The notes below the pieces were generated by a model, which did not search any database, was not told the DNA's origin, and saw only the letters and a list, made by a program, of their open reading frames with translations. Source: Cladocopium goreaui (lineage: Eukaryota > Sar > Dinophyceae > Suessiales > Symbiodiniaceae). From it: 64,000 bases of DNA. Where the stretch lies: contig CAMXCT020003413.1 in assembly GCA_947184155.2 (NCBI GenBank), positions 494,501-558,500 of the forward strand, in the 5' to 3' direction. The position numbers and the translations under genes were made by a program. Shown here one piece after another: positions 17,314 through 45,235 of this stretch (positions within the stretch are counted from its first letter, which is position 1; each line of letters begins with the position of its first letter).

Positions 17314-17381
17314 TAACCCCTATCTTTCTCCTCATACTAACCCAGGCAAGCTTACTTCGTCGGCAGTTACGTTAGGCAGTG

Positions 17382-17407: not shown

Positions 17408-17431
17408 AGCACTTATCAACACATGTCCAAA

Positions 17432-17590: not shown

Positions 17591-18098
17591 TTTTTTTCCG
17601 TCCAACGCCTTCATGGCTTCCGCCAGGTCGTTCAACATGTTTCAGAGCATGTTGCAATTGGGATTAATTGATGAATTAAGCTACGCAAAGGCCGTTGCTG
17701 TAGTGGCCTCAAAAGTAAACTGGTGGAGGACCGATACATAGTCCTATGCCCTGTCACGCTCATTAAGAAAACCAAGCAAAACACCAAGAAACAAAGACAC
17801 AAAAACCAAAAAAAACACCAAACACAAACAGAACACAAACACACAAGAACAAAAACAAACAAACCAAAAAACAACACACACCACAGAGCAGTGACGTGAC
17901 AAGTTCCAGTTTATGGGTGAAACAAAACGATTAAAGCAAGAGGTGATAGCTTAGTATCATCTCGGTGCATGCAAACTGACATCTTGTGTGCCATGATGAC
18001 GCTGGCCCATACAATCAACAAAAAACAAGACACGCCACAAAAACGCCATGGGCCAATTCAGAGGGTGTGGGAAGCAACACAGCTCAATGCAGAAACCA

Positions 18099-18121
18099 GG
18101 GATCCCCCCAGCCAGGATCCC
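18099..18121 (-). other. 3'-tail hairpin with loop TGGCTGGGG (E2)
   Basis: Same arms and loop as at 16383-16405. Confidence 0.7.
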
Positions 18122-18331
18122 CGAGATCACAAAGAGCAGCCTTCACGGCATGACATTCACCCTGACACTTTGAAGCAAACACCGACAACGCCGGGTCGCT
18201 ACGAAAGTGGTGAGAATAACTAACGCAGTGAAACTGGAGAGTGAAAACATGGTCAATGTGAAAATGACAGCAATAGCTACGGCACTCAGGGCACCCTCAG
18301 AGTCCGCTCAGTTGTTCTTTTCCAAGCATCA

Positions 18332-18551
18332 TCATCGTTGGGAGCTGTAGTGCACACTTGCGGTGCATACCGCTTTCAAAACTGAATCCAATGCGATCGA
18401 GTTAGCGATGATCGCCAGCGCGACAGCATTGATGCAGGCTTGCAAGCGTAGAGCTGCTCGAGCGGTCAACTTAGCAGGTGTTGCAACCAACTGCATTTGA
18501 TGCGGTCGGTTGACCATGGTAGCTGGCTCAGTCACATTGGTACAGGAATGC
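18332..18551 (-). pseudogene. E2 ORF3, 3' portion
   Basis: Continues the ORF3 sequence that stops at 33384, after the E3 insertion. An Ala/Ile/Leu-rich helical segment lies in its centre. It matches 46550-46753 in E5 nearly base for base. Confidence 0.5.
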
Positions 18552-19055
18552 GAGCGTTCCTCTCAGCACATTTTTTTTCCGTCCAACGCCGTATGGCTTC
18601 CGCCAGGTCGTTCAACATGTTTCCAAGCATGTTGCATATGAGATTAATTAATTAATTCACGCAGGGGCCGAAGCTGTAGTGGCCGCAAAAGTAAACTGGT
18701 AGAGGACCGATACATAGTCCTATTCCCTTGTCACGTTCATCAGAGAACAAGAAACGAAGCACAAAGAAGCAAAAGCAACAACAACACCAAAAACAAAATC
18801 AAACAAAAACAAAACATACAAAAAGCAAACAACCACACAACCACAAAGCAGTGACGTGACAGTTCCAGTTTATGGGTGAAAAAGATCTATAGAGGCAAGA
18901 GGTGATAGCTTAGTATCATCTCGGCGCATGCAGATGACAACTTATGTGCCATGTTGACGCAGGCCCATAAAACAAAACAACAACAGGACCAACCACAAAT
19001 CACCATGGGCCACTTCAGAGGGTGCAGGAAGCAACTAAGCTCAATGCGGAAACCA

Positions 19056-19078
19056 AGGATCCCCCCAGCCAGGATCCC
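19056..19078 (-). other. 3'-tail hairpin with loop TGGCTGGGG (E3)
   Basis: Same loop; the outer pair of the stem is altered to a wobble-compatible base. Confidence 0.65.
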
Positions 19079-19334
19079 CGAGATCACAAAGAGCAGCCTT
19101 CACGGCATGACATTCACCCTGACACTTTGAAGCAAACACCGACAAAGCCGGGTTGCAACGAAAGTGGTGAGAAAAACTATCGCAGTGAAACAGATGAGTG
19201 AAACATGATCTAAGGTGAAAATGACAGCGAGGCTACGGCACTCAGGGCACACTCAGAGTCCGCTCAGAACTGCTTTTCCAATCATCATACTGCATCAAAA
19301 TTGCGGTTGCGGTATGCACCACTGTGCTAGTGCT

Positions 19335-19507
19335 TTTTTTCCGTCCAACGCCGTATGGCTTCCGCCAGGTCGTTCAACATGTTTCCAAGCATGTTGCATA
19401 TGAGATTAATTGATTAATTCACGCAGGGGCCGAAGCTGTAGTGGCCGCAAAAGTAAACTGGTAGAGGACCGATATAGTCCAACTCCCACGTTACGTTCAG
19501 AGAACAA
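19335..19507 (-). mobile_element. E4: 173-bp 5'-truncated E copy inside E3
   Basis: It contains only the last ~170 nt of E (ccgtccaacgcc end, T-run first). It is flanked by a perfect 21-bp duplication at 19314-19334 and 19508-19528. It is a classic strongly 5'-truncated insertion and defines the 3' end of the family. Confidence 0.9.
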
Positions 19508-19528
19508 ATGCACCACTGTGCTAGTGCT

Positions 19529-19850
19529 CTTGCAATTCGTCTTCATAGTATGGGAGATTGTACTCGTCATCAGTGCGTGGGAATATCTGTGCATTGAGTT
19601 CTTCTGATGATGTGCTGGCTCCCCTGGCTGTATGGTGAAGCTGCAGAATGGCTTTCTGCGCCTGGGACCCTCTGGGATGGGATGTTTTGGATGCCTTGAA
19701 GCTTCTGTCAGGCCTTCTCTAGAAGTTTAGTGGCATCATCGACTTCGCTGGTAGTGACTTGGCAGAGGGTCAGTTGAGTAATGGACTTTGCAAGACGAGG
19801 ACAGCGGCGTCTTTGATAGGAGTCGGTCGTTCCATGCCAATGGACTAAGC
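19529..19850 (-). pseudogene. E3 ORF3, degraded
   Basis: Aligns with 16653-17000 (the E1 ORF3 subfamily) but with indels and no long frame. The spacer that follows (19990-20220) keeps the TATAAT-like motif (20099-20112) and a hairpin (20184-20208). Confidence 0.55.
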
Positions 19851-20183
19851 TGTCTACAGGTTTTTCGGCAGACGCAAAGCCTCAGGGCATACAGTTAACA
19901 CCCACCGTGTTGCAACCTTGGCCGAGAAAGGGCATGGGGAGGTGTGGTAAAAGTCATTTGGCCGGTCGAAAGATTGGTTGATCGAAGGTCAAACGGTGAC
20001 GGGCACCATGGCTAGATGTACTTTGACATCACACTACACTACCATGTAACAATTAAGGTAGAACAACACGAACAAACCAAGTTAAAAACCCTGAAAAGGA
20101 GTATTATAACCGCCCCCCCACCACCTCCCGTCCCATACTGGCTCCGGCATGCTGACAGCAAAGGTAGTCGCAGTGGGCAGTAG

Positions 20184-20208
20184 CCAACCATGAGTACCCC
20201 ATGGTGAC
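20184..20208. other. GGTACC-type hairpin between ORF2 and ORF3 (E3)
   Basis: The arms match 17382-17407, with GAGTACC at the centre; it is partly decayed. Confidence 0.5.
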
Positions 20209-20357
20209 AACGCCACTCAACCTAGGTCAAGTTACAGGCTGAATGCATGTGTGGGAAACTTGGGGTACTCTAGGATTATGGTTGGTCCGAATGGCCGCTA
20301 CTGCACGCAAGACGTCATTTGTTTGAACTTCATATAACGTGGTCGTTTCTTGCTTAT

Positions 20358-20809
20358 TCTTCCCAGTTAATTCGCTATTCGCTTTGAATTAGGTTTGTTT
20401 TCTCATGTGGCTTCTTCTATGGCTTCGTATTGGGGAGGGCCCTTCTCCCTTTGTGTTGTTTCTGCCTTTGTTCCGAGAGGGGCGGTAGATTCCCGGTAGA
20501 GCCATGGACTAGGCTGCACTGCAGTGAGCTTTACTGGCGCTGTCCAGTTGGTTTTTTGTTTGTTGGGCTCTGCCCCGTTCTTTGTTGCTTCGCTGTTTTG
20601 CTTTAAGGCGAAACGCAAATCTGGCTGGGGGATTTGCGAGTCGTTTTTGTTTGTGGTAGTCTTGTTGTTTTTTGTTTGTCTTTGGTTTCGTGATGATTTG
20701 CCTAAGTTTTTGGACCACACGTGTCCTTGTACATTACTGCTTTTCATTGCTTACGCAATTGTAAGGACCGAGCCTAGTGCAACGTCGGCCAAACCGGAGG
20801 AAAAAAAAA
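20358..20809 (+). mobile_element. P1: short retroposon of family P, inside E3 ORF2
   Basis: 452 bp ending in GGAGGA9. Flanking duplications are gtggtcgtttcttgcttat (20339-20357) and the same with one extra T (20810-20829). E2 shows the uninterrupted coding sequence at 34573-34640. It contains the TGGCTGGGG hairpin (20614-20638) and a T/G-rich tract. No ORF is conserved with P2, so it is probably non-autonomous. Confidence 0.85.
20614..20638 (+). other. Hairpin with loop TGGCTGGGG (P1)
   Basis: Arm CGCAAATC, loop TGGCTGGGG, arm GATTTGCG: a perfect 8-bp stem. The loop is identical to that of E although the stem sequence is unrelated. Confidence 0.75.
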
Positions 20810-20829
20810 GTGGTCGTTTTCTTGCTTAT

Positions 20830-23800
20830 GGCAGGCTCGGAGTCAGTCCATAGTTGTTCCAGTGTGTATCCTGGTTTCGGTTCAATATACCGTCGGTTCC
20901 ACACTGCATGATGGGACCAGTGAGGCGCATCAGGGTTGATTTCAACTGAATCCCTTTTCATGTCATATTCTCTGAGCATATCATCTAATTCTTGCAGGCA
21001 AGCGGCTCGGTGAATACAACATTGTCTGACAGCACCATCAATGTGGAGTGGCCATCCCACGGGCATGTGGGAGTCTTCCAAGAGTCCATCACCATTTTGC
21101 TCCATGATTGTACCCAACATAGGAACATCAATAGTTGCTTTGAGGCTAACTTGCGCACGTTTGCACTTCCACGTGTCAGGGGCTAAAAGGCCTCTGGCAG
21201 CCAACAGTTCAAGCGATGGGATTCTGGTTGGTCATTCGTCGGCAGCACCTCTTCTTTGATGACTAACTTTAGCCCATGTAGTGGCTGGGGCTGTTCTTTT
21301 GGAGGGTCTTAAGGTGGTTGGGATGCAGTATCCTTGGGTGTTGTGTCTTCAAACCAGGTGGGGCGGACCGACTGGACACCTATGGGACTTGCGGAGCTGG
21401 CGATTTTGATGCTTTCTCTGCGCAGGCTATGGTAGACGGGTGGGATCATCCATGCCGGCACAAAAACTGTGATAAACTGCACATTCCAAATGACCTGCAA
21501 ATTCTGCGGCTAAACTTCAGGCGTGATACATCTTACCTGACCATCGATCACTCTGGTGTAGGATTCGGAGCCGTCGAAGGATGCTGTGACTTTTAGACCT
21601 AGGTACAGCTCTCTAAACCAGTATTCCTTGAGCATCATAAAGGAAAGGTGAGGTGCCCTCACTTCCAATACGTGCGATGCTGGCACTAAAAGAGTGACCA
21701 TCCATTCAGCTAAAAATTCAATCATTTTGACTTCGAGTTTGGGAGGATGGCTTGGACTGCTCGAAGTGCACCCGCAATGTCCGCGACATGCCGACGTGAG
21801 GGCAGTCCAACTGTTCGCTTGGCATACTCATCAGCGAAGTAGAGTCTGCACAACTTTGAGACCCACTGGCTCGGCTTCTCCATGTCTATGGTGATCTTGG
21901 CCAGGGGCCATGGGTCTGGGAGCGTGGACAAGCAATGCAGCAATTCGGAGGTCGGGTCTGCGGAGATGACTGGGAGGGCTTCTCCTTGCGGGCGATAGTC
22001 AACTACTGGTCCTACCGTGCCCTTGCTTTTTTTGCGTATGGGTGCGGGTGACTATATGCACCGCTTGGATGGTGTTCTCATATTGGTTGACCATAGCTCT
22101 TAAGTACTTGCATGCGCGGGCAGCTGCTCTTCTTGTGTTTGGCCCATCTTCGGGCTGATTCTTGGCAGCTACTGCTAGGATGTCTCTCGCTTCTTCTTCA
22201 GGCGACCGTTTGGGTTCCGTACCAGGTGCAGGTGCAGTTAGAGCGGTACCTTGGACTGACGCCTCTTTTGCGCGTGGCAAGTGGTCTGGGATCGGCAACT
22301 TAGGGTGTAATCGCCATCCATCAAAGAAGTATATACCAGGCAGAGACAGAATCTCCTGTTCTGGGCCCGTCTGCGCCACTACTTGCCCGGTGCGGGCTTT
22401 GTACAGTCCTGAGGGCAGGCACACGTAGCTCGGAAAGGGTGTGCGATCAGCCGCGTAGGCATATAGGACGACTTCAGAGAAAGGGAGAGTCTGCTCGGGG
22501 AGCCACTTATGTTGAGTTGCTAAGCCTGTTTTGACTTCTTGGAGGCGCTCCCTGATTAGCCAGCGAAGGTCCGACCTGCGCACCAATATTAGACGGTATC
22601 TCGCTCGCTTTACTTCGTCGGCTTGCTGATCGTAGTATTGGTTGGCGATTGCAAGGGGAGGGAACTCCCAGGTTGGTGCTGAAGTCAGTGACCACCAGCT
22701 TAACTGTGCTAGATTCTCTTGAACTGGGTCAGGATCAAAGTCAGGCCACCTCCATGTCGTTTCTCCTCTCCGGAGGCCCCGGATGCCATATGCAATTGTC
22801 GCAATCACCTGCGCCATGCCCATGAGCCCCATCATGTCTAGCGGGGAGACAAGCAGGGTTAACGATTTGGACCGGGTGAGTCCGACAGTGATTCTGCCAA
22901 GGCAGTCTTCGGTATCTTCTGCAGGGGAGCCATTGGAGTAGTATTTGGTGTTTAAAAATCCAATGCTGGGCTGAGCTACGATTGATACCTGTGCTGTTCC
23001 TCCTGCTGAATTGGCTATTGTTTCTACACGCAGGGTGCGGACATAATTCCTTTTGAGCACGGAGCGGTTCAAGTTGTTCTTGTGATCTGTTGCCGTGGTC
23101 ATTATAAAAAGTCCATCTGCAAATCCAGCATTGTGTGGGAAAGGGGTGAGTACCTCTGACACAAGAGTCTCCAGGTCTGTCGCTACCAACCCGTTAATCC
23201 TAGCATTAGTATCCCAAAGCACTAATTGGAACCCTGGTGGCTTGTCGGGGAGTCCTCCCGAGGCAAAACTTCCCAGTTCCCATAGGCCATTGATCTGCCT
23301 GCAGAGATCAGGATATCTAACTGCAACCACTGCATGGTATGTCACAGGACTAACCCCAGAGCTGGAGGGAAGCATTAACCCCCAAGCATGGATGTCACTC
23401 ACTCCGGCGGTCTGGGAATTTAAAACTGCTTGTATGTCTCCAGCCATAGGTAGGAGAGTAGCGGCATGCTGCAAGATCCAGGCGAGGCGCACGAGGGACC
23501 GTGGAAAATTAATAGTGGTACCTCCCAGCAGTTCTGAGTCCACAAATCGGGAGTGCCGTTGCATATTGGGCTGGGCGGCTTCAAATTGGGCTCTCAGGCC
23601 TGGAAGAACAGTGCTGGCTGCCCTGAGGTCTTCCGCATCCTGCGGCGAGAGGTGACTTGTCCATAGCTGACCTAAAGTGGGCTGGCCTCGTTTGAGGATT
23701 TGACCAAGAGCCGCTAAACCTTCATTGGCCGAACCGTCCAGCAGTCGGATCATTGCATCGGCAAGGTTAGCTGGCATATAATAATTGCGGTCGCTTCGCA

Positions 23801-25224
23801 GCCCATGCTTCTTGGCCAACAGGAGCTGTCGTGATCGTTTCGCGTTGCGGGCTGCACGATCAATGCCGCCGGGTGTCTGCTCAGAGTCTCCTGTCCACAA
23901 GACCAGGGGTTGCTGTCTCAGCAGGCTGATGACTGCAATTTCTCGGTCAGTACCATATTGCTGGCCTTCATCAATGACCAGGAGGGAGAGCTCTTGCATA
24001 AAGCCACCCATTGTGGACCATTGCATGGTAAGATCCTGGGCTACCGTTCCTCCGGTGGCTAAAATTAACTGACACTTATTCAGCATTTGCCTTCTTTCTC
24101 TCGGGTGTATGTCGAATTTCGTGTGGGAGTAACTACTTTTGTTACGTTCTTGGTCTCCCACTAGCCTACCTATGCGCCCAAACACCCCCGACGGGGGGTC
24201 GAGCCATAGGAGGAGGTCAGCAAAGGATCTAGTACCGGAGTTCTCTTTACAGATGAATAATATTTTGAGGCTGTCAGTAGCATCGATTTCAATCAAGGCC
24301 AGGATGAGGATTGCCATCGATTTCGACTTGCCTGCTCCGAAAAGCCCTTGGATACACAGGTCTAACCGATTGGTGAGCAACGCCATTGTCACTGCGCAGA
24401 GTGTGCCCAAGACATGTCCGTCGAGCTCAGCGGCAAAGGATAGTGCAGTGGAGCGGGTCCAGGGGTGAAGCTCACCCTCTACGTGACATGGAATTAGCAC
24501 TAGGCGTAGCAACTGGCCGCACAAATGCAAGAAATGTGATCTTTTGTTGCCATCCATTCCTTCCACTGCCGTTTGGACATTATAGATGCCTAATCCCAGG
24601 TGGTATCTGCACGGGGGAGTTTGTGCAACAGCGGTAACCTCTCTGGTAGGCTTGGTACATCCGAACATCCACATTGTGTGTAGGTAGAAGGTCCCTGGGA
24701 CCGGGCTTTTCTGCCCTTGAACGGTCGCATCAATGGGGTCCAGGCGCTGGCCGGAGGCAACATAACAGTCTTGAAGGGCTACAAGCTGTTCTTTCGCGAA
24801 AAATTCAATGGCTGGTCCTGAGAGAAAGGCTACTTCGATGAATCTGGGGTTGCACTGTCTGTGTATGCGGGCGGCAGGCAGCTCATCCTTGCTTTTGGAT
24901 GTGCGTGGCGTGATGGCTAGGACCAATCCAAACAGGACTTGAAGGTCTCCTCCGTCATCGGCTGGAGCTTCTGCGGTGCCTACCATTGCAACTAGCCTAC
25001 CCGTGCCGATGGGGCTAACTTTGTGATGGTGCGCATCGCTGGCTAGGAGGCTGAAAACTTCAGTTTTGCCAAGGCTTGGATGTCGGAACGCAAATGCATC
25101 TTGTCCGCCTTTGACTTTCCAGTGTCCAAATTCGCTGTCTTTGAAGAGGAATTCGAAAGTAATGGGTTGCCATGGTTGACGGATAGGTCCTGCACTTTGC
25201 ATTGTTAACCCTGTTTCATTATGG
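20830..25224 (-). pseudogene. E3 ORF2, helicase and C-terminal part
   Basis: The main frame (25222 to 21999) carries the SF1 helicase core: Walker A GLFGAGKSKS, a VIDEGQQ Walker B, WTGDSEQTPGG (motif III) and VGLTRSKS (motif VI). It then frameshifts near 22020, and the C-terminal region continues in several frames (21943, 21725, 21500, 21204) to 20830. The N-terminal end at 25224 is the insertion point of the split-repeat element; the protein resumes at 32879 with no codons lost. The helicase core is catalytically complete on paper, but the gene as a whole is broken. Confidence 0.8.
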
Positions 25225-25565
25225 TTGCAGTTAGACGTGTCTAATAGCTGTTTATAAACAAGACCTTGAAGCCTTTTTAAGGCGGCCCGAAAAAAAAAAC
25301 ACAAAATGTTTGACAAACAACAAACCTGTGAACTTTTAAGTTGTGTTTGGACATGGTCGCATTGCGTACTCATGCACGTACGTATTGCACATGTTGCGTG
25401 TTTATACATGTTTTGGTAATATATGGACTGATGACGTATGTCATGCTTGTGCTTCTCCCAAACACTTCGTTCTGAACTCATGATCTATCTCTATGTGAAT
25501 GTATCTCAAGATGCAGGGTAGGGTAGGGTGGGACACCAACAAAGCTGTTGGGTCAAATTTTTCTT
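25223..25565 (+). repeat. Split repeat A1
   Basis: 343 bp matching 32093-32433, with only a 2-bp length difference in an A/C run near 25290. Ends at the ORF0 start. It begins with ggttgcagttag. Confidence 0.9.
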
Positions 25566-25566
25566 G

Positions 25567-25944
25567 ATGGATGCTTCTCAGCTACAAGGTTTGTCGGGGC
25601 CACAATTACTGACGCTCCTCTTCACATTGCTCTGCGAAGTCGCCCGACGACTCAGCATTCCCATCACGGTGGGTGCACAGATCGGTGACATCGACGAGGA
25701 AAGCGGAGTAACACATGGCCCAGACGCAGCTGACAGTGGAATGGCCGCAGAGACAACAGACTTACATTCTGCGGGATCTTCAACGGTACACCCATGGTCA
25801 GTACCGTCCCCTGGAACGCCCGAAGGGCCACTTCCTCAAGAACGGTGCCATTATGTTTGCAGCATGTGTGGCTGCAACGCGTTTTGCGCCAACACAGCCA
25901 GGGACCATGTACGGCATCGATGTGCCTCTCACACATGGTACTAA
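25567..25944 (+). CDS. ORF0, small Cys/His protein of the split-repeat element
   Basis: ATG at 25567, immediately after A1; 125 codons to a TAA at 25942. A hydrophobic N-terminus (LLTLLFTLLCEVA) is followed by a Ser/Thr/Pro-rich linker and a C-terminal cluster of Cys and His (CSMCGCNAFC, then HVRHRC) that could bind zinc. It is not a known family. The next ORF (25715) overlaps its second half in another frame, so a frameshift product or a pseudogene break is possible. Confidence 0.4.
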   Translation: MDASQLQGLSGPQLLTLLFTLLCEVARRLSIPITVGAQIGDIDEESGVTHGPDAADSGMAAETTDLHSAGSSTVHPWSVPSPGTPEGPLPQERCHYVCSMCGCNAFCANTARDHVRHRCASHTWY

Positions 25945-26836: not shown

Positions 26837-27197
26837 GGCGCATGGCCTCCGGATGCAACCACTGCTGGATGAATGAGGGTGGCACACACCCCCTTTGGCG
26901 GAGTTATGTCTGCCCAATGTTGGCTCCCGAGCGACCTCTGGAGTTCTTTCATCCTTCTATGGTATATGATTCAAGGACTTCGGTCGTGAAAATATGCTGC
27001 TGGGGTGGTGTGAACTTGTACTTTGATCCATTTTTGTGGGGTTTCAAAATTTTGTGTCATTGATGCCAGTTTTATGAATGCTTGCCGTCATATGCAGTGA
27101 CGTCCAGTATGATGCAATGCAATGTTGACCGCCTGATGCAAGGTGGTCACATGAAATTTTATCGAGTTATTTCGAAGTCTCGGCTCCAGCTTGCACC

Positions 27198-31667: not shown

Positions 31668-31676
31668 AGCAGACCG

Positions 31677-32433: not shown

Positions 32434-32462
32434 CCCGCCCAAATGTACTATGTACCCGCCCT

Positions 32463-32877: not shown

Positions 32878-32878
32878 A

Positions 32879-33894: not shown

Positions 33895-33940
33895 CCTACG
33901 CTACCCTAAAACACACTACATTAAGTAAGGTCCCCGAGAA

Positions 33941-33955
33941 AGGATATTATAATCC
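33941..33955 (-). promoter_or_regulatory. TATAAT-like motif upstream of ORF3 (E2)
   Basis: aggatattataatcc is nearly palindromic, next to a C8 run and about 50 nt before ORF3. It is shared with E5 (47324-47340) and, less exactly, with E1 and E3. Confidence 0.4.
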
Positions 33956-34023
33956 CCCCCAGCTCCTCACGTCCTTTATTGACACCGGCAAGTTTACCAA
34001 GGGATTAGCAGCAATGGGTAGTG

Positions 34024-34049
34024 GTCAACCATGGGTACCCCATGGTGAC
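34024..34049. other. GGTACC hairpin between ORF2 and ORF3 (E2)
   Basis: Arms gtca(a)ccatggg and cccatggtgac around TAC. The identical hairpin lies near the 5' end of E5 (48977-49002). Confidence 0.7.
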
Positions 34050-34091
34050 AGAACTTCAGAACCACGGTCTTAAACAGGCTAACATCATGCC

Positions 34092-34112
34092 AACCGTGGG
34101 TACCCCACGTTA
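34092..34112. other. Second GGTACC hairpin between ORF2 and ORF3 (E2)
   Basis: Arms aac(c)gtggg and cccacgtt around TAC; 12 nt after the ORF2 stop. The stem differs from its neighbour, yet complementarity is kept. Confidence 0.65.
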
Positions 34113-34123
34113 ACTCTAGTAGC

Positions 34124-37100
34124 TTACTGAAACTGCACGGACTGACTGGTGCAGGATTTATCACGGCTACCGGAGCTACTGAATGCGGCATTTGCAGGGG
34201 GTGGGTCACTGCTCTCGGCTGGTTTCATCATTTGGGCAAGTAGTGGATGGCTTTGTTTTTCGCGCAGGACTCTGGTCATTTCACGAGTGAAGGCTGCAGG
34301 GTCATCCACTAGTGCTTTTGCTTCCGCTAGTGGCTTGTCAAGGACAATAGCGATAAGCATTTCGCCACCATCTTTCTGGATTAGGGCTGGTCGGCCGGCT
34401 TGCACCTCTGCGAGGATTGCTACTGCCTTGTTTTCACACAAAGTGCGTTCCCATTCCTCCAGGGCTCTTTGTGCTAGGGTGTCAGTTTGTGGTGAGGCCT
34501 TGAGAGCTGCCGATGTCCCTAACGCGCGTAGGAAGGGGCTGTCAGGTAGCATGGGAGATGGGAGATGCTGGATAGCCGCTACTGCACGCAAAACGTCATT
34601 TGTTTTGATTTCATACGAAGGGGACGTTTTCTTGCCTATGGTAGGCTCAGAATCAGCCCATAGTTGCTGCAGTGTGAGCCTGGTTTCGGCTCCATGTACC
34701 GTCTGTTCCATACTGCATGGTGAGACCATTGAGGTGCGTCATGGTTGATTTCAACTGAGTCTCTTTTCATGTCATATTCTTTGAGCATGTCGTCTAATTC
34801 TTGCTGGCTCGCGGCTCGATGAATACAACATTGCCTGACAGCACCATCAATGTGCAGTGGCCATCCTACGGGCATGTGGGAGTCTTCAAGGAGTCCATCA
34901 CCATTTTGCTCTATGATTGTGCCTAGCATAGGGACATCAATGGTTGCCTTAAGGCTAAGCTGTGCACGTTTGCACTTCCACGTGTCAGGTGCTAGAAGGC
35001 CTCGGGCAGCCAACAGTTCCAGCGATGGGAACTCTGGTTGGTCTTTCATTGGCAGCACCTCTTCCTTGATAACTAGCTTCAGCCCGTGCAGTGGCTGGGG
35101 CTGCTGCCCTTGAGGGTCTTGGCTGGGTTGGGGCGTGGTATCCTTGGGCGCTGCAACATCTTCGAACCAGGTGGGGCGGACCGACTGGACGCCTATGGGA
35201 CTGGCGGAACTTGCGGTTTTGATGCTTTCTCTGCGCAGGCTGTGGTATACTGGTGGGATCACCCATGCCGGCACGAACACTGTGATAAACTGCACGTTCC
35301 AGATGACCTGCAGGTTCTGCGGCTTGATTTCGGGCGTGATGCACCTTACCTGACCATCGATTACTCTGGTATATGATTCGGAGCGGTCGAAAGATGCTGT
35401 GACTTTCAAGCCTAGGTACAGCTCTCTAGAATTCAATCATTTTGACTTCGAGCTTGGGGAGGATGGTCTGGACCGCTCGGAGCGCGGCCGCAATGTCTGG
35501 GACATGTGTGGGTGAGGGCAGTCCGACTGTTCGCCTGGCGTATTCATCGGCAAAGTAGAGTCTGCACAACTTTGAGACCCACTGGCTCGGTTTCTCCATG
35601 TCTATGGTGATCTTGGCCAGGGGCCATGGGTCTGGAAGCGTGGACAGGCAATGTAGTAATTCTGAAGTCAGGTCTGAGGAGATGACTGGGAGGGCTTCAC
35701 CTTGCGGGCGATAATCGACGGCTGGCCCTACTGCGCCCTTGCTTCTTTGTGTATGGGTGCGGGCTGCTATATGCACTGCTTGGATGGTGGACTCATATTG
35801 GTTGACCATCGCCCGCAAATACTTGCACGCGCGGACTGCTGCTCTCCTTATGTTTGGCCCATCTTCGGGCTGATTCTTGGCAGCTGTTGCCAGGATGTCT
35901 CTCGCTTCTTCTTCCGGCGACCGGGTAGGTTCTGTGCCAGGTGTCGGAGCAGTCTGGGCGATATCTTGAACTGGCGCCTCTTTCGCGCGTGGCAGGTGGT
36001 CGGGGATTGGCAACGTAGGGTGTACCCGCCATCCATCAAAGAAGTATATACCTGGCAGAGATAGGATTTCCTGCTCTGGGCCGGTCTGTGCTACAACTTG
36101 CCCGGTGCGCGCTTTGTACAGCCCTGAAGGCAGGCACACGTATGTGGGAAAGGGTGTGCGATCAGCCGCGTAGGCATACAGGGCAACTTCGGGAAAGGGA
36201 AGATGCTGAACGGGGATCCATTTGTGTTGTTTTGCTAGGCCTGTTTTGACTTCCTGGAGGCGATCTCTGTTCAGCCAGCGAAGGTCTGACCCTCGAACCA
36301 ATATGAGACGGTATCTCGCCCGCTTAACTTCGTTAGCTTGCTGATCGTGGTATTGATTGGCAATTGCAAGGGGAGGGAAGTCCCATGCTGGCGCGGAATT
36401 CAGTGACCACCTGCTTAGCTGTGCAAGATTCTCTTGTTCCGGGTCAGCATTGAAGTCGGGCCAGCCCCATGTCGTCTCTCCTCTGCGAAGGCCCCGGATG
36501 CCATATGCTATGGTCGCGACCACCTGCGCCATGCCCATGAGCCCCATCATGTCTAACGGGGAGACAAGCAGGGTCAGCGATTTGGACCGGGTAAGTCCTA
36601 CAGTGATTCGGCCGAGGCAGTCTTCCGTATCTTCCGTAGGTGACCCATTGGAGTAGTATTTGGTGTTCAGGAATCCGATACTTGGCTGAGCTACGATTGA
36701 TACCTGTGCTGTTCCTCCTGCTGAGTTGGCTATTGTTTCTACGCGCAGAGTGCGGGCGTAGTCCTTCTTGAGCACTGAACGGTTCAAGTTGTTTTTGTGG
36801 TCTGTTGCCGTGGTCATTACGAAAAGCCCATCTGCGAACCCAGCATTTTTGGGGAAGGGGTAGAGTACCTCTGAGACGAGCGTTTCTAAGTCTGTTGCTA
36901 CTAGGCCATTAATTCTAGCATTGGTGTCCCAAAGGACGAATTGAAACCCCGGTGGTCGGTCTGGAAGGCCTCCGGAGGCGAAATTTCCCAGCTCCCACAT
37001 TTCGTTGATGAATCTGCAGAGGTCGGGGTACCGAACTGCCACTACTGAGTGGTATGTCACAGGACTGACTCTTGAACTGGAAGGGAGCATCAACCCCCAG

Positions 37101-40100
37101 GCATGGATGTCGCTCACTCCGGCGGTCTGAGAGTTTAAGACTGCTTGGATGTCGCCAGCCATAGGTAGGAGGGTAGCTGCATGCTGCAAGGTCCAGGCAA
37201 GGCGTACTAGGGATCGTGGGAAGTTGACCGTTGTGCCTTCCAGCAGTTCTGCATCCACGAAAGTGGAGGAGTGTCCTTGCACACGTGGCTGGGCGGCTTC
37301 AAATTGGGTTCGCAAGCCTGGGAGAACGGTGTTGGCTACTGTGAGGTCTTCCGTATCTTGTGGCGAGAGTTGGCTTGTCCATAGCTGACCTAACGTGTGC
37401 TGGCCTCGACGGAGTATTTGACTGAGGGTAGCCAGGCCTTCATTGGACGAACCGTCCAACAGCCGGATCATTGCATCTGCAAGGTTAGCTGGCATATAAT
37501 AATTTCGGTCACTTCGCAGCCCATGTTTTTTGGACAACAGGAGTTGTCGAGATCGTTTCGCATTACGGGCTGCACGATCAATGCCGCCGGGTGTTTGCTC
37601 CGAGTCTCCTGTCCACAGGACTAGGGGTTGCTGTCTCAGCAAGCTGATGACTGCAATTTCCCGGTCAGTACCATATTGCTGGCCTTCGTCAATGACCATG
37701 AGGGAAAGCTCTTGCATAAAGCCACTCATTGTGGACCATTGCGTGGTGAGGTCCTGGGCTACAGTACCTCCTGTGGCTAAAATTAACTGGCACTTGCTCA
37801 GCATTTGCCTTCTTTCTCTTGGATGGATGTCAAATTTGGTGTGGGAATAACTGCTTTTGTTACGTTCTTGGTCCCCCACCAACCTGCCTATGCGCCCAAA
37901 CACCCCCGACGGGGGGTCGAGCCATAGGAGAAGGTCAGCAAAGGATCTAGTGCCCGAGTTTTCTTTGCAGATAAACAATATTTTGAGACTGTCAGTGGCA
38001 TCAATTTCAATTAAGGCCAGGATGAGGATTGCCATCGACTTGGACTTGCCTGCGCCGAAGAGTCCTTGAATACACAGGTCTAGCCTATTGGTGAGCAAAG
38101 CCATTGTCACTGCACAAAGCGTGCCCAAGACATGTCCATCTAGTTCAGCGGCGAAGGAGAGTGCAGTGGTGCGGGTCCATGGGTGGGGTTCACCTTCCAC
38201 GTGACATGGAATCAGCACCAGGCGCAACAACTGTCCGCACAAATGCAAGAAATGTGATCGTTTGTTACCATCCATTCCTTCGACTGCTGTTTGGACATTG
38301 TATATGCCTAATCCCAGGTGGTACCTGCACGGGGGAGTTTGTGCAACAGCGGTAACCTCTCTGGTGGGCTTGGTACATCCGAACATCCACATTGTGTGGA
38401 GGAAGAAAGTTCCAGGGAGCGGGCCTTTCTGCCCATGAACGGTAGCATCGATGGGTTCCAGGCGCTGGCCAGAGGCAACATACCAGTCTTGGAGGGCTAA
38501 AAACTGTTCTTGTGCAAAAAAGTCAATGGCTGGCCCCGAGAGAAAGGCTACTTCGATGAATCTGGGGTTGCACTGTCTGTGTATGCGGGAGGCAGGCAGC
38601 TCATCCTTGCTTTTGGATGTGCGTGGCGTGATGGCAAGGACTAACCCGAACAGGATTTGAAGGTCTCTTCCATCGTCGGCTGGAGCATCTGCGGTACCTA
38701 CCATTGCGACAAGTCTTCCCGTGCCTATAGGGCTAACTTTGTGGTGGTGAGCGTCGCTCTCTAGGAGGCTGAAGACTTCAGTTTTGCCAAGGCTCGGATG
38801 TCGGAATGCAAAGGCATCTTGCCCCCCTTTGACTTTCCAGTGGCCAAATTCGCTGCCCTTGAAAAGGAATTCGAATGAAATTGGTTGCCATGGTTGACGG
38901 ATAGGTCCAGCACTTTGCATTGTGAGCCCTGTCTCATTATGGCCTTCGTTGGGGCTGAGCATGGGCAGATAGTAGTCTAGCATGTAGACAGCCATGGGCA
39001 GTTGCAGGGTGCCGAGGAAATGTTGAACCATGGTGGTATAGGTGAGCAATTTGGCCCTTGACGCAATGGTAACAGTTGCCAACGAGGCCAAATACTGGGT
39101 TGCCTCTTGCTCCGTTTGTACCGCTGAGTTGTGCACAGCAATGTGGGTGACTAGTGCCTGGGTTGTGGTCTCAGGCAGCTTGCACATGATGGCTAATTCG
39201 CGCAGGAGTCGTTTGGCTGTTTTTGGGAGCTCGAAGCTGCACCATGATATCAGGCGGAGGGGAGCTTGTGAGTAAACCTCAAAGGGAAGCACTCCTGGGG
39301 TACCCTCTAACTGAGCCATGTCCGGTCGTCCCTCTGGAAGGGCAACTCGTGTCCAGTGCGAGTAGCTGTGTTGTGCAGTGCCTAGGTATGCTCTCCATCC
39401 TGTGATGTGTGTGATTGCAAAGCCCCGTTGCTTTAGCAGTTTGATGTCTTGGTTAGACGGGTTCCATACACAAAGCCGGTCATCGGCATGGTGAATGAGG
39501 TGTACCTGTCGAAGCTGGGACAGGCTGTGTGCCGTCAGTAGCGATGGTGGCAGAGCAATGGCTGCTAGCACGGTTTTGCCTTCAATGTCTGGGAATTCCG
39601 AAAGGATGGTTTCCCATACCATTCCTACGAGCCAGCACTGTGGCCTCGTATGAAAATAGACCCCACCATGTACCCGGTTAATCTGAGATAGTCCACTGGG
39701 CGAATTTCAGGGGGCAGACATACCCCGACCAACGGATGCGCAACTAGTAATTTAGTAAAGAGTCGCAGGCCATGCGTGTACCCTGGCCATGGCGGTTTCC
39801 TATGCGCAGGGGTAATGGGACAGAAACGCAGCAATTTCATGGCTCGACTGATGATCTGTGCCTGCACTTGGTCAGCTCCGGGCACCCCTAGGACACGGCA
39901 CCAGGTGTGCGCACCAATGGGAAACATGGCAATGTGCAGCAGCAAATATTCCTGTGTGTGGGCAGTTCCTGCAATTGTGCCAGCCCTTGCATTCCAATCG
40001 TCCTGTTTGCTTGCAAGCTAGCAGTACATCCCACTCTTCATCGAGTCCTCCTCCACCCAACCCAGTGCACTGAACGTCCAGGGACCCTGGGTCAGCGTCA

Positions 40101-42130
40101 TTGAGTTGCCAGGTGGTGTTGTCCATGACAATGATCTTCCAGTCAGTGTATTGAGGGTCTGCATGGCTAGCGAGAACTTCATTGATGGCTAATTCTGCGT
40201 TACTAGGGTCAATTCCCAGTCGTTGTTGCAGTGCTTCTAGGAGAGGGAGAATTTGGGCAGTAGGCAGTTGGAGGCTAGCTTGCTGACCGCAAAAGACACA
40301 GGCAGTCTGGCAGGTCTTAGGCCAGGGTGTGTGGTCGTTGTTGCAGTTAGGGGCTTCAACTGGCGTCCAAAGGCTCTGAAGCAGCAACACTTGCGTCTTG
40401 GTAAGACTGCGCTTTTGCGAGACATGTGGCTTGGCGACTATTTTACTTCCTCTGACGAAATCGCAGCCTGTGGGGTGTGTCCATAGCGGGGGTGCTTCAT
40501 CAACTCCTATGAGCGACACAGCAAGCGGTTGCAGCCCTTTGCTTTGCCACTGTTGGAGTTTGTGCCCTAGGCCTACTTTGCTCCCATGGAAGGCATGCAC
40601 TATTGGTGGCAGGCTATACCCGTTGTCTAATTCCTTGCTTTGAAACAATTTGTCCCCTGGGAGGCAGAGTATGGGGAAGTCGGCTGGGAAGACAGACATA
40701 GGAGAGAGTGCACCTTGCTCGAATATGGGGCGCGCCCAGGTCAGGAAGGGCGGGGTCCGCTCGACAAAGTCCGGTCGTAAGTAACGACCATCTCCGTGGC
40801 GCGGCCATTCCGCTTGCTGTGGGAGAGGGAATGCAATGATTCCAGCCCATTCACCTAGCATTGCCCATGCATGTGTCCAGTCAAGCGGGGTTCTGGCTTT
40901 ACATCCTAGTAAAGGGGTGAGCACTAGTCCGCCTCTTATCGCCTCCGCTGGGTCTGCTGGGACAGCTGTAGTGGCTAGGAAACTGGCTCGGCTGTTATAG
41001 AGTGCGGTAACCCATTCGTCTGCTGATCTGCGATTGGCAGAGTGGGCTATTCGTCGTGCTTTAGGGGCGGGTGCATCGCTCGAGGAGGAGCCTGGGGCAG
41101 CAGTCAGTGGCATGCATGCATCTGGGGTTGCCTGGTCCATGTCGACATCTGCTGTACAGGTCGGGATATGCCCTGTAACAATGATCAATCCGGCATTGAG
41201 CTCAGCTTTGGCTTCTGTGGTAAGGAGAACTGCCGGCGGGCACTGGCTAGAACTGGCCATAGTATTGTGTTGCATTGCTTCGGCTCTGCTTGCCTTATCC
41301 GTCATGAGGTTGACCAATTCGGCTATCTCGAATAGTGAGGTCGGCACGCAGTCAGAGTCTATCAGTGCAAAGTTTACAGTGGGAAACACTAAGCACAGCG
41401 CCTCCAGAGCTGCAGCACCAGCCCAGGTGTAGTGGACCTGATGCAATCCTGTATCAGCGTTTATGGGAAAATGGATAGCAGTTGTTTTCTCCCGGTAGGG
41501 GCCAGTAACTGTACATCTACCTTTGATCCAGGGTGCAAAATGTGGCCAGTAGGCAGGGGGATCAGTGCCTGACAGTTTGCGGTTGTCCACAAAAACATAG
41601 ACAGTGTCATACTGCGGCACCCATGAGAGGTTATCTACTATCCACTGGAAAAGTGCCCTATGATGGACCTGGCTAGCTGCGGGGCGTCGGATTCCATTCC
41701 CTTCGTCCACCATGATGGCTGGGTATGTCAGGGGTGACTGGGGCATTCGACGAGAGCCGACATCGGCCCACTTCCACCTTTGCTTGATGTCGTCCATGCC
41801 GAGTGGAGTTTCAATTTCTTTTTCCGAGAGGAAAAGTTCATCAAGTTGGCGGCTTATTTGCAAGACCCCTTGGACATTGGAGAAATCTATAGGCGCGGCA
41901 ATTTCCCACTCCTCTCTTGGGGGAGGCTCAGCTCCTTGTTGGAAGTAGGGAGTGTCCTCCTCTGTCTCTATGGCGTCAAAGTAAACCGATTGGTCACTGT
42001 CAACTGACGCATCCTCGCCTGTTTTATCTGTGATGGTTGGTCCCGTTGGTTCGATGTCTGTATCTGAGTCGTCAGGGTCATCCGGCGCCAATGAAATGAA
42101 CCTATTTGATGCCATGAGCTGTTGTAGCAT
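34124..42130 (-). pseudogene. E2 ORF2: giant protein with SF1 (UPF1-like) helicase domain
   Basis: From ATG 42130 to the stop at 34124, about 2,700 codons if repaired. Parts: an acidic N-terminus; about 730 residues in the first frame, with a region containing NFALIDSDCVPTS of unknown fold; a segment at 39945-39625; the main frame from 39622 with Walker A GLFGAGKSKS (~520), Walker B VIDEGQQ (~642), motif III WTGDSEQTPGG (~672), YYMP (~700) and VGLTRSKS (~1009); then a C-terminal region of about 500 residues ending SQSVQFQ. Lesions relative to E1/E3: a deletion of about 35 bp near 40015, a 4-bp loss near 39628, about 100 bp lost near 35432 and a 1-bp loss near 34678. SF1 helicases unwind nucleic acid using ATP. 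No RT, RdRp or nuclease motif was seen. Confidence 0.8.
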
Positions 42131-42147
42131 GCTGGAGCGGGCTTGAC

Positions 42148-42174
42148 CCTGAACAACCGGTACCCGGTGTCAGG
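42148..42174. promoter_or_regulatory. GGTACC hairpin 18 nt upstream of ORF2 ATG (E2)
   Basis: Arms CCTGA...ACCGG and CCGGT...TCAGG around TAC. The same distance to the ATG occurs in E1 (54393-54419) and in the plus-strand copy (59619-59645). Confidence 0.7.
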
Positions 42175-42256
42175 TTACAAGTGACCAGCGAGGACTAGCA
42201 ATACTATCAGGGCGGTAAGTGCGAAATGTGTCCAATGGATTGGCAAGGCTAGGGAG

Positions 42257-42287
42257 ACCCCGAACACCCGGTACCCGGGGTCGGGGT
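42257..42287. promoter_or_regulatory. Second hairpin upstream of ORF2 (E2)
   Basis: Arms ACCCCGA...CCCGG and CCGGG...TCGGGGT around TAC, 127 nt before the ATG. Counterparts are at 54504-54532 and 59502-59532. Confidence 0.7.
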
Positions 42288-42765
42288 TCCTGTTGCAGGG
42301 CCAATTCGAATGGAGTTGAAAAGAGAACCAAAACAATCGGGGTTTGTCTATCACCTTGGTGTGCGAATTGAGTGGCTGATGGCTGACCTAGCTATAAAAA
42401 CTAGTGGAGCCGCAAAAGCTGCAGTGAAGACACATTACCCAGTAGCGGTGTTCAATGCAATTCTCTGATCAAAGTAGAGGGTAGTTCTAATGGAGCTGAG
42501 ATAACTGAAGACGACAGGACCTGGGACACACGCCTGACCAAGACAGCAAGAAAAAGCCAAATCACAATAAATCCCCTTACTCTGGCTTGCGGGGGTCAAT
42601 TTTAAGTTGGTACGCTCCCATAAGTAAAAGTTTGGGGGGTAACACCCTGGCACGCAGCTGCTTTTCTCTTGGCGCATCTGTGGGGTAGGCGGCGAAAGAA
42701 ATGGCACTGATCAGGCGGTTTCAACACAGTCATGTGCACTCAATGCTAGCTGGCTGCAAATTCGA

Positions 42766-44293
42766 TCAGTCAATGATTTCCATTTCCATATCTGCCAAGG
42801 GCGAAGCCTGCGGAGTGTCTGGTGCCTGGCCATCTTGCATTGTTTTGAGGCGTTTCGTGATACGCGACAGATGCTCGCGAGCACTGGCTAGCCGCGTTTC
42901 ATGAAAGGCCACTCTTTCACTGGCTGCCTTCTGCATGTTCTGCAATGTCGGGATGTCCGCTGCGGCTAGGTCAATGTCCTGTCTGGTTTCACAGGCGGGC
43001 TCAGGGCTACTAGCAACAACAGTGTCAGTGGCTTGCGTCTCTGGCGATTCATTTGGTGTGTCAGCAGGCGACGATTCTTCTGTCGGTGTCTCGTTGTCAA
43101 CAGCGGGTTGCTCCTTTTGAGGCGGCTGCTGTTCTTCAGCTCTGTTGTGTGCTGTAGAGTGAGAGTCAGAGGATAACGCACCGGTACCCGGGGTATCCGT
43201 CTTTGATTTGCTCGTGGGTGGGAGCGATGGTGGACCTGGTCTCTGGCTGAACTCCAGCTCCTGCCGCCGCGTCTGTACTGGGATTGGACGGCACGGTGGT
43301 TGCAGCGTTTTCTGTGCTTTGCTGACTCGCGGCCAGCAAGTTGGCTGGTTTTTGGGTCTGTTTGGAATCCGCTGGTCGGCTGTCTGCCAGCGTCCGTTGG
43401 TTTGCTTGAGCAATAATATATTGCAATTCCATATATTGCCTTTCTCGATCAGCCACTTGCTGCGGCATGTTCTGAGTACCCTTCGGGTCCTGTGGAGCGG
43501 CTTCTTGCAGTGCTTGCGCAGGCTGTTTTTCTGCGGTTCGTTCCGTCCACCTAGTTGGTTTCGGTGGAGGCGGAGGTTGTGAACGCTTCGCATGCTGAGA
43601 AGGTTTGAGTTGATTAAGGCGTGGCTGAATTTCATCTCTCAATTCAGGTGGGTACGACTCTCCTGTCTCAGCTAACCACTGTATGGTGTCTTCATGCAAC
43701 CACAGGGTTGTCCTCCACAATGGAATGGTTTTGTCATCATTTACCCAGAACAGTGGCGTAGGCGGCAGCAACGCATGGGCCTCCACAATCAATGGCAGTA
43801 GGAAAGCCAATTTCTTCGGTTCATGGAAAATCGCTGCCCCGTTCGGGTGAACCTTAAGGTAGGTTTCATTCCACACAAAAGGGTTCACGACACGCATGGT
43901 GTGGGCGATGTCATTGAAAATGGATAAACGAATGTCGGTATACAGTGGCGCAACACCGTAGGCTTTTCCATCCCAGGGTAGTTCAAGGAAACCCCACCGC
44001 TCTTTTCGGTTGTGGTTAACAGTCTCCCAAAAGCTGGGTAGGAATTCTTTCTCAAGGACATCAGCAAGAGTAGAAAAAATAAGCCATGGTACCTCATCGA
44101 TATACAATTGGTATTCCACCAGCGTAAAGTTATATGTTGTTTGGCAATCTCCTACCCAAATTGTGCCCCTCACTGCAAGGAAGCGGACGTTACTGGCATC
44201 TCGCATGTCCCAATTCATCCCAGCCGACATGTCTAGTAAGTGTTGATCGGCGACAACGATTGGGCCAGACGGAAAGTGTGTCGGTTTCGGCAT
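42766..44293 (-). pseudogene. E2 ORF1, unknown protein with Pro-rich linker and coiled-coil tail
   Basis: ATG 44293. The N-terminal ~200 residues look globular (VEYQLYIDEVPWLIFSTLAD; KERWGFLELPW). Next comes a Pro-rich stretch (PPPPPKPTRW), then a Gln/Ala/Thr-rich low-complexity linker, a Glu/Thr/Pro-rich part, and a C-terminal helix (HLSRITKRLKTMQ) ending MEMEIID-stop at 42766. A frameshift near 43200 separates the two frames. It resembles a nucleic-acid- or particle-associated protein in architecture only; no family was recognised. It is followed by a 635-nt spacer and ORF2. The plus-strand relative is at 57466-59025. Confidence 0.65.
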
Positions 44294-45217
44294 ACCAGCA
44301 GTGGTAGCACTATCCGGGAGTGGAGGTTATTGCGCGGTGTGTGGTTGGACCAAACGACGGGAACCACGCGCTATTGTGGGCAGTGGCCAAACAACGGGAA
44401 CCCCGTGTCAGCTTCGATGTAAGAGCGGTCAGGCAAATTGAAAAATGGGGACGGGGAAGACCAAGGCAACTCTGGCTTTGCAGGTGCGGTGTCCTCACAG
44501 TTTGAGCCAACGGCTGCTGACGAAGACAGTTAGTCATGTTCGGATCAGGCACAAAATCAGAAAAACAATCAAGGTCGTAATGGGAAGTGTATGCAACATG
44601 CTGCCGGTTAAGGGGTTGTAATGAAAGTAAGTTGTTACTCTGTTGTGGAGGCATAAGCCATAGAGGGGGAGTGGCAGAGAGTAGAGCATAGGGGTATGGG
44701 AGAGGGGAGAGGGCGGCAAGTGGCAAGGGCAGCAACGCACGCCATAGGAATTTAGCGGAGCAGGTGCCTCGTCAGTGCTGGTGTCCAGGGTGAGATGTGT
44801 GTCTCCGCTGATTTACGTGGGGCATACAGGTGTATGTGCAGTAGAGCACCTATACTCGGAGTGGGGACGGGTGGGCAATGCGCTAATCGGTGCAAGATAT
44901 GCTACTAACGAGAGACCCTGAGGAGTGTTGTCAACAAGGATTTAGCATCATTTAGGGGATATGACCGTCAGGATGCTTGAACCAGGATGATGTTCTTTAG
45001 AGTGTGAACCAGGTGAGATGAGTCACTTGTAGAGAGTTAAAGCAAAGCTTAACCCTCACCATTACCCAAGGTACCCTTGGGAACAGTAGGAAGATGATAG
45101 ACACATAGGCCGAGTTCCTACTAATCATGATGTTCGGGGCACAATGGGGGGTGAGGGCATGAGGTACTACTTACGGAGATGATGCTAAGTACGTTAAGCG
45201 GTATCAGCCAGCTATAT
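44294..45217 (-). other. 5' region of E2
   Basis: 924 nt between the E2 target duplication and ORF1. An open frame at 44735-44310 is Pro/Leu/Ser low-complexity and unsupported as a gene. It holds a near-perfect hairpin at 45065-45081 (CCCAAGG, TAC, CCTTGGG) and another small palindrome near 45040-45057. It is probably the 5' untranslated or promoter region. Confidence 0.5.
45065..45081. other. GGTACC hairpin in the E2 5' region
   Basis: Perfect 7-bp arms CCCAAGG and CCTTGGG around TAC. Confidence 0.65.
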
Positions 45218-45235
45218 CAGGATCTTAGTCATTTC

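What the first reader, a model, noticed from the sequence alone, without database searches (positions are those of the whole stretch)
17591..45217. Giant three-ORF LINE-like retroposon (E) that encodes an SF1 helicase but no visible reverse transcriptase
Five copies (E1-E5) share one 3' end with a short A-tail, have 18-21-bp target duplications, and are 5'-truncated at different points. That is the signature of target-primed reverse transcription. Unlike known LINEs, the ~12.8-kb unit carries ORF1 (coiled-coil tail), a ~2,700-codon ORF2 with a UPF1-like helicase core, and a small ORF3. No RT, endonuclease or RdRp motif was found. It could be a helicase-bearing RNA replicon, or a polycistronic transcript copied in trans by a LINE.
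Basis: partly seen in the sequence, partly recalled or inferred. Interest (0 to 1): 0.95.

Follow-up and report, generated by a model that had tools for sequence, protein, structure and literature searches.

The report
Tail end of a 32-kb LINE
The repeats in this dinoflagellate-like genome are broken-off back ends of a giant jumping gene about 32,000 bases long, whose missing front end carries the copying enzyme, a DNA-methylating enzyme and the host's own RNA leader tag, so the supposed 'LINE without a reverse transcriptase' does have one.

Summary
In detail: five nested minus-strand copies end at 15988, 17591, 18571, 19334 and 45814, each with the same GGACGG(A)7-8 end and an 18-21-bp target duplication. 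The interpretation 'no reverse transcriptase' does not. The 12.8-kb copy is itself 5'-truncated. Elsewhere in the same genome (1.17 Gb, unnamed) the family continues about 19 kb further 5': a 992-aa ORF, a 530-aa ORF, a weakly matching C5-cytosine-methyltransferase ORF, an endonuclease-reverse transcriptase ORF and an RNase H-like ORF, then the window's ORF1, helicase ORF2 and ORF3. Order and strand recur on many contigs with near-constant spacing (capped hit lists). One copy on contig C41 runs 32,190 bp between two copies of a 20-bp duplication, from a spliced-leader-like sequence to the A-tail, so it arose in one event. Three of four upstream junctions read carry that leader with 1-3 edits. 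ORF2, RT and methyltransferase ORFs show Ka/Ks near 0.1 between diverged copies. Closest known: SymbioLINE-Dnmt of Symbiodinium (PMC5890265), described with a methyltransferase ORF and an EN-RT-RNase H ORF. The 32-kb size, 3' helicase ORFs and leader-tagged 5' end are the new parts.

The parts
15988..54930 (-). Outer copy (X) of the giant LINE, 3' end at 15988, 5'-truncated at 54930; holds the nested copies below
   Evidence: 3' end motif and 18-bp duplication TCGACAAGAACATCTCTG at 15970 and 54931
17591..45217 (-). Copy E4 (12.8 kb without its nested insert), inserted in ORF2 of X; 5'-truncated upstream of ORF1
   Evidence: 18-bp duplication GAAATGACTAAGATCCTG; other genomic copies continue 5' of 45217
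18571..33383 (-). Copy E3 inserted in E4, 5'-truncated within ORF2
   Evidence: 19-bp duplication TGTGCTGAGAGGAACGCTC
19334..19506 (-). Copy E2, 173 bp of 3' end only, inserted in E3
   Evidence: 21-bp duplication including one A
45814..49013 (-). Copy E5 inserted in ORF2 of X; contains another insertion at about 47400-48970
   Evidence: 21-bp duplication including one A
42766..44293 (-). ORF1 of E4 in two overlapping frames (375 and 289 aa), no Pfam match
34127..42130 (-). ORF2 region of E4, interrupted (open pieces 42130-39872 and 39622-35426, further coding to 34127); helicase core in 39622-35426
   Evidence: purifying selection
21999..25217 (-). Helicase part of ORF2 in copy E3 (1072 aa, open), model resembles RecA-type helicases
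33373..33894 (-). ORF3 (173 aa) of E4, no Pfam match at E up to 0.1
17591..18570 (-). 3' terminal region of E4, ending GGCGTTGGACGG(A)7; the other copies share its end (E2 only 173 bp of it)
15861..15995 (+). Fragment of the 992-aa ORF of a diverged relative of the same giant LINE (target of X), continued at 54930-55190
   Evidence: tblastn 76% and 49% identity

Best explanation
The window's copies are 5'-truncated, nested insertions of a non-LTR retrotransposon (LINE) of about 32 kb in a dinoflagellate-type genome. Shown: gene order 5' leader-like sequence - 992-aa ORF - 530-aa ORF - DNA cytosine methyltransferase ORF - endonuclease/RT ORF - RNase H-like ORF - about 6 kb without long ORFs - ORF1 - helicase ORF2 - ORF3 - short A-tail; one copy complete from end to end inserted in a single event with a 20-bp target duplication; coding selection on ORF2, RT and methyltransferase. 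Inferred: the RNA is trans-spliced at its 5' end with the host leader, the element's endonuclease nicks a target, the RT primes at the common 3' end and often stops early, giving 5'-truncated copies such as the five in the window. Inferred more weakly: the helicase helps copy or unwind so long a template, and the methyltransferase marks new copies.
For: C41 copy: leader-like CCGTAGCC..GGCTCAAG at C41:278143, A-tail end at C41:245954, the same 20 bp CACTTAAATACCCCTAGTAG outside both ends, 32,190 bp. C1495 copy: EN-RT ORF, ORF1, ORF2 and the common 3' end in one 23.7-kb stretch. Order and strand from the listed hits: 992-ORF to methyltransferase in 24 of 40, methyltransferase to RNase H end 17 of 40, RNase H end to window 5' end 19 of 40, window 5' end to helicase 8 of 40; no opposite-strand pair within 30 kb; gaps mostly 3.74-3.78, 6.25-6.40, 3.1-5.8 and 5.1-6.2 kb. 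First-look candidates rise toward 3': 201, 229, 305, 535, 1503 (queries differ in length). Leader at the 5' junction in 3 of 4 loci read (L051, L052, L053; L054 is truncated). Ka/Ks between diverged copies: ORF2 0.07-0.10 at dS 0.56-0.80; RT 0.088; methyltransferase 0.07 over 400 codons. Pfam RVT_1 and Exo_endo_phos above cut-off.
Against: No copy in the window has the 5' part. Only one copy was shown complete with a duplication at both ends; no separate duplication was found for C1495, which starts right after the A-tail of an older copy and could be a join, and which has about 0.6 kb extra (22.7-23.3 kb) against E4. The genome search for the frequency of leader-tagged 5' ends did not complete. 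In each of the two 992-ORF comparisons one same-strand pair is in reverse order. Methyltransferase identity is weak by Pfam for this copy (0.05; 11 of 21 relatives at up to 0.1, best 5.8e-4). Hit lists hold only about 40 places per query, so copies lacking one half could be missed. Some ORFs of the copies read are broken. The leader has 1, 2 and 3 edits in the three copies, and a further 3-edit match lies in L046, away from the element's end. Ka/Ks is higher for RNase H (0.216) and for some close pairs (up to 0.303).
Confidence: 0.92

Rival explanations
1. Two neighbours: a methyltransferase LINE plus an independent helicase element (E) without RT that is copied in trans by a LINE and sometimes lies next to it.
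For: About 6 kb without ORFs of 200 aa or more lies between RNase H and ORF1, so a boundary there is imaginable; no RT was found in the window copies.
Against: A single 20-bp duplication encloses both halves on C41; C1495 has both in one 23.7-kb stretch; recurring order, strand and spacing; upstream extents of partial copies differ (L039, L043, L044).
Confidence: 0.04
2. The window copies are retroposed subgenomic RNAs (for example trans-spliced messages of ORF1/ORF2) rather than aborted reverse transcripts of the 32-kb RNA.
For: Dinoflagellate transcripts are leader trans-spliced (PMC11453091 passages), and downstream ORFs need some means of expression (inference).
Against: The five window copies start at different points: before ORF1, between ORF1 and ORF2, inside ORF2, 3' of ORF2 and in the 3' UTR; no leader with up to 3 edits was found in the window or in loci L009-L038, which reach 1.5 kb either side of E's 5' region.
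Confidence: 0.06
3. E is an endogenised RNA virus or RNA replicon with a helicase.
For: Large ORF with a helicase and no RT seen in the window; endogenous RNA-virus copies with leaders are reported in Symbiodiniaceae (PMC10235124 passages).
Against: No RdRp or capsid family among the matches listed by Pfam or PHROGs (phage families only); the same unit encodes EN-RT-RNase H.
Confidence: 0.01

Closest known systems
SymbioLINE-Dnmt (de Mendoza et al. 2018, PMC5890265; outline with abstract, sections 6, 7, 15 and passages seen)
   Same: Dinoflagellate LINE with a methyltransferase ORF upstream of an endonuclease-RT-RNase H ORF, target duplications, Ka/Ks under 0.2 for most methyltransferase comparisons and similar for RT.
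   Different: A word search of its main text finds no 'helicase', 'spliced leader', 'DinoSL' or 'nested' and one 'trans-splic'; it describes elements without poly-A tails. Here two more ORFs lie 5', ORF1/helicase ORF2/ORF3 lie 3', the complete copy is 32 kb, the 3' end has 7-9 A and the 5' end carries a leader.
Insect LINEs (TRAS, Jockey) with captured viral SF1 helicases (Morozov et al. 2019, PMC6338049; passages seen)
   Same: A LINE that carries a helicase.
   Different: There the helicase is virus-derived and in insects; here it sits in a separate giant ORF 3' of the RT, no viral relative was detected, and it is conserved with Ka/Ks about 0.1.
DinoSL-tagged retrogenes (PMC6050394, PMC12014239; abstract starts in the search listing and passages seen)
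   Same: Host spliced leader fossilised at the 5' end of retroposed DNA.
   Different: Those are host genes; PMC6050394 favours LTR elements as the machinery, while this is a LINE that tags its own copies.

Membership tests
Non-LTR retrotransposon (LINE) | Reverse transcriptase of LINE type in the same unit | tested here: met
   PF00078 E 1.9e-15 in L040 ORF, linked to the window's part in one insertion; no RT tree was built
Non-LTR retrotransposon (LINE) | Endonuclease (APE type) | tested here: met
   PF03372 E 2.6e-10 in the C41 copy; 5.5e-9 in relative P0053, 99% identical over 296 aa
Non-LTR retrotransposon (LINE) | Common 3' end, variable 5' truncation, target duplications | tested here: met
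SymbioLINE-Dnmt | C5-methyltransferase ORF upstream of EN-RT ORF | tested here: met
   PF00145 in 11 of 21 relatives at E up to 0.1, best 5.8e-4, invariant GSPCQ and ENAG columns; order; this copy alone is below cut-off
SymbioLINE-Dnmt | Two ORFs only, as described in the paper | tested here: not met
   additional ORFs on both sides; so it is not filed as a member, only as a LINE of the same general plan
SymbioLINE-Dnmt | No poly-A tail | tested here: inconclusive
   a constant run of 7-9 A ends the copies, which may be templated
SymbioLINE-Dnmt | Phylogenetic placement of RT or methyltransferase inside the published clade | not tested
   published sequences and supplements were not available here
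SF1 (UPF1-like) helicase | RecA-like ATPase domain | tested here: met
SF1 (UPF1-like) helicase | Second RecA domain | tested here: inconclusive
   some rows align to 783, but the model there has low confidence
SF1 (UPF1-like) helicase | SF1 rather than SF2 | tested here: inconclusive

The most novel reading that the evidence does not exclude
A 32-kb LINE whose genomic RNA is trans-spliced with the host's spliced leader and which encodes, besides EN-RT-RNase H, its own DNA methyltransferase and a giant helicase protein; each cycle adds a new leader at its 5' end, and this machinery may be what also makes leader-tagged retrogenes in dinoflagellates.
Probability: 0.5. Interest if true: 0.85.

Novelty: new variant of a known kind. 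Interest (0 to 1): 0.74.

Why it matters
A LINE of 32 kb is several times longer than the usual 4-8 kb (recalled), and copying it in one TPRT event needs an unusually processive system; a conserved helicase ORF in the same unit suggests how, and is testable. A leader at the 5' end shows which RNA was copied and may count cycles. It also offers a concrete candidate for the machinery behind the leader-tagged retrogenes of dinoflagellates, and warns that 3' fragments of giant LINEs can be mistaken for elements without RT.

Tried and rejected
RT inside ORF2: no RT family among the Pfam matches; N-terminal 752 aa folded badly (pLDDT 33), so that part is untested by fold; the C-terminal ~400 aa and the stretch around a GHSAGSYSG motif were not folded. 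PHROGs and NCBIfam gave nothing for the ORF2 relative P0010; for the 903-aa ORF PHROGs gave two weak methyltransferase rows (0.047, 0.099). PDB sequence searches gave no helicase, RT or methyltransferase. Rfam and tRNA scans of the window were empty. RdRp/virus: rejected. Separate E element: rejected. A claim 'largest LINE' is not made: one search returned 0 papers and four, judged unrelated from titles and abstract starts. Searches for a published description of this unit, with papers listed of papers found: 20 of 47; 15 of 235; 15 of 20; 15 of 39; 6 of 6; 5 of 5; 4 of 4; 10 of 17; none of those listed appears to describe a helicase-bearing or leader-tagged dinoflagellate LINE, judged from listings plus the passages read. 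Papers not listed, subscription journals and supplements were not seen.

Limits of counts. Genome searches score about 40 best places per query. Rows dropped before the count: 1 second piece, 7 second or short pieces, 1. In one search only plus-strand loci were compared: 12 printed, 9 of which start at E4's 5' end and share sequence beyond it. The shuffled-pair null includes repeat pairs. In the flank check, of six copies outside the window the flanks of C2279, C1495, C348 and C41 (3' side) match the family over 270 bp or more; C2223's and C41's 5' flanks match it only over 47 and 58 bp; C3179's 5' flank matches the SINE-like insert; C1495's 3' flank matches nothing in the window.
Full report
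What was checked. The window is G000:C3413:494501-558500 of a 1.166-Gb genome in 6202 contigs whose name is withheld. Self-comparison and a search for the shared 3' end give five copies in the minus orientation, nested: X 15988-54930; E4 17591-45217 inside X; E3 18571-33383 inside E4; E2 19334-19506 inside E3; E5 45814-about 49013 inside X. The five have 18-21-bp target duplications. A split-repeat retroelement (repeats 25220-25565/32090-32433 and 31674-32092/32460-32877, ORF 28446-31667 with a sub-threshold RVT_1 match) interrupts E3.

Why it looked RT-less. E4 lacks an RT because it is cut off at its 5' end. A genome search with the 500 bases at E4's 5' end gave 40 scored places of 535 candidates, and 9 of the 12 loci printed share sequence beyond E4's end. 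Ten-kilobase pieces upstream showed an ORF with reverse transcriptase (L040; PF00078 1.9e-15) and an RNase H-like domain (RVT_3 3.4e-4, 21.0 bits against a cut-off of 21.6). Copies C41, C1495 and C2223 align with each other through this region into E's 5' end at 93-98%. C1495 holds the sequence from inside the EN-RT ORF to the common 3' end in 23.7 kb, with about 0.6 kb extra against E4; no separate target duplication was found for it. C41 extends further 5' through the rest of the EN-RT ORF (PF03372 2.6e-10) and ORFs of 903 aa (methyltransferase), 530 aa and 992 aa.

One unit. From five genome searches (helicase; E 5' end; RNase H end; 992-ORF; methyltransferase), I compared contig, strand and order of the listed hits (36-40 each, second pieces dropped). 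992-ORF is followed by the methyltransferase in 24 of 40, the methyltransferase by the RNase H end in 17 of 40, that by the E 5' end in 19 of 40, and that by the helicase in 8 of 40 (one of the 8 is E4 itself); no opposite-strand pairs within 30 kb, and one same-strand pair in reverse order in each of the two 992-ORF comparisons. Gaps are nearly constant (3743-3783 bp in 22 of 24; 6251-6404 in 13 of 17; 3124-5832 in 16 of 19; 5096-6212 in 7 of 8). The rest have larger gaps, as insertions would give.

Both ends of a complete copy. C41 and C2223 stop being alike at one point, and there stands a sequence close to the dinoflagellate spliced leader: CCGTAGCCATTTGGCTCAAG in C2223 (1 edit), CCGTAGCCCTTTGGCTCAAG in C2279 (2 edits), CCGTAGCCACTGGCTCAAG in C41 (3 edits). 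In 357,523 bases scanned with up to 3 edits there is one further site, in L046, not at an end of this element. The reference leader is given as a primer in PMC8045281. A fourth locus, C3179, is truncated further in. Leader-like remnants (TTGGCTCAAAG, CGGCTCAAA) follow, as expected if leaders from earlier rounds persist (inference). The 3' end of the C41 copy was then read: GGCGTCGGACGG(A)8 followed at once by CACTTAAATACCCCTAGTAG, the same 20 bases that end 2 nt before the leader at the other end, 32,190 bp away. This is one insertion of the whole unit. Its middle, between the fetched pieces, was located by search hits and not read in full.

Selection. Codon comparisons of copies give Ka/Ks 0.07-0.10 for ORF2 between the window's diverged copies (dS 0.56-0.80), 0.088 for the RT ORF, 0.07 for the methyltransferase ORF (400 codons) and 0.216 for the RNase H ORF between C41 and C2223. 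ORF2 against C1495 gives 0.07 and 0.155, against L002-L008 0.08-0.17, and RT C41/C1495 0.30 at dS 0.013; the higher values come from closer pairs. ORF2 is thus maintained much like the RT and is not passenger DNA.

What ORF2 is. The 1072-aa piece 25217-21999 resembles RecA-type helicases (pLDDT 53 overall, 70-86 in parts). SF1 membership is not settled by these results. The N-terminal 752 aa gave no usable model. ORF2 relatives: 102 proteins at E up to 1e-3 among 7992 scored candidates, one of them 32% identical over 87%, so the protein has diversified. One relative, P0053, joins the element's endonuclease (99% identical over 296 aa to C41) to ORF2. ORF1, ORF3, the 992-aa and the 530-aa ORFs have no confident match (ORF1; ORF3; others); the 530-aa ORF has a sub-threshold Peptidase_C39 hit (0.018).

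How it most likely works. A read-through or own transcript receives the host leader by trans-splicing at its 5' end; proteins are made; the endonuclease nicks DNA; the RT starts at the common 3' end; many copies stop early and stay as 5'-truncated pieces such as those in the window. The leader, the complete copy, the truncations and the duplications are shown; transcription, trans-splicing as the source of the leader, and roles of helicase and methyltransferase are inferred.

Relation to known elements. The closest description is SymbioLINE-Dnmt (PMC5890265), whose text describes a methyltransferase ORF and an EN-RT-RNase H ORF, target duplications and no poly-A tails. A word search found no helicase or spliced leader there. 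LINEs with SF1 helicases are known in insects (PMC6338049). Because the two-ORF layout is not met and no tree was made, I do not file it as a member of SymbioLINE-Dnmt; it is a new variant of the LINE kind, probably of that lineage. What the literature searches covered is told under Tried and rejected.

Nesting. Copies often lie in older copies of the family: four inner copies in the window, X in a diverged relative, and, of six copies outside the window, C1495, C2279, C348 and C41 (3' side). C2223 (over most of its flank) and C3179 are exceptions. Whether this is target preference or survival in repeat-rich DNA was not tested.

Noticed in passing
window 25220-32878 (+): Retroelement with split direct repeats (A1-ORFs-B1-A2-B2 layout, as in DIRS/Ngaro elements, recalled) inserted in copy E3; RT-like ORF 28446-31667 with sub-threshold RVT_1 (0.0025). 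PMC5890265 describes DIRS elements in Symbiodinium.
   Followed up: partly
window 3381-7439 and 10386-14434: A 4-kb stretch repeated 7 kb apart at 98% identity, with 9299-10392 and 14432-15505 also repeated at 96%; a large tandem duplication.
   Followed up: no
window 15861-15995, 54930-55190 and 57409-59022 (+): Plus-strand fragments of a diverged relative: the 992-aa ORF and, 2 kb on, an ORF1-like protein (42-61% identity), with no tblastn match to the methyltransferase or RT between them; an internal deletion or a different gene order.
   Followed up: partly
window ~20345-20817 and ~47400-48970 (+): Two related plus-strand insertions (74% over 228 bp) ending in an A-run; a relative of the second lies beside the C3179 copy. 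They look like SINEs or short LINE pieces; the first has a 12-bp flanking repeat.
   Followed up: partly
L050 (C1495 37160-40000 in reverse-complement coordinates): Tandem array of units of about 535 bp some 4 kb beyond the 3' end of the C1495 copy.
   Followed up: no
window 62003-62396: Short tandem repeat of about 100-bp units in AT-richer DNA near the window's right end.
   Followed up: no
L051, L052, L053 5' junctions: Leader remnants behind the first leader differ in number between copies, which might count retroposition cycles.
   Followed up: no
C1495 reverse-complement 9472; P0053 residue 296: The C1495 copy begins, and the endonuclease part of P0053 ends, at the same short stretch (LQSDQP) of the EN-RT ORF; chance or a weak spot.
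   Followed up: no
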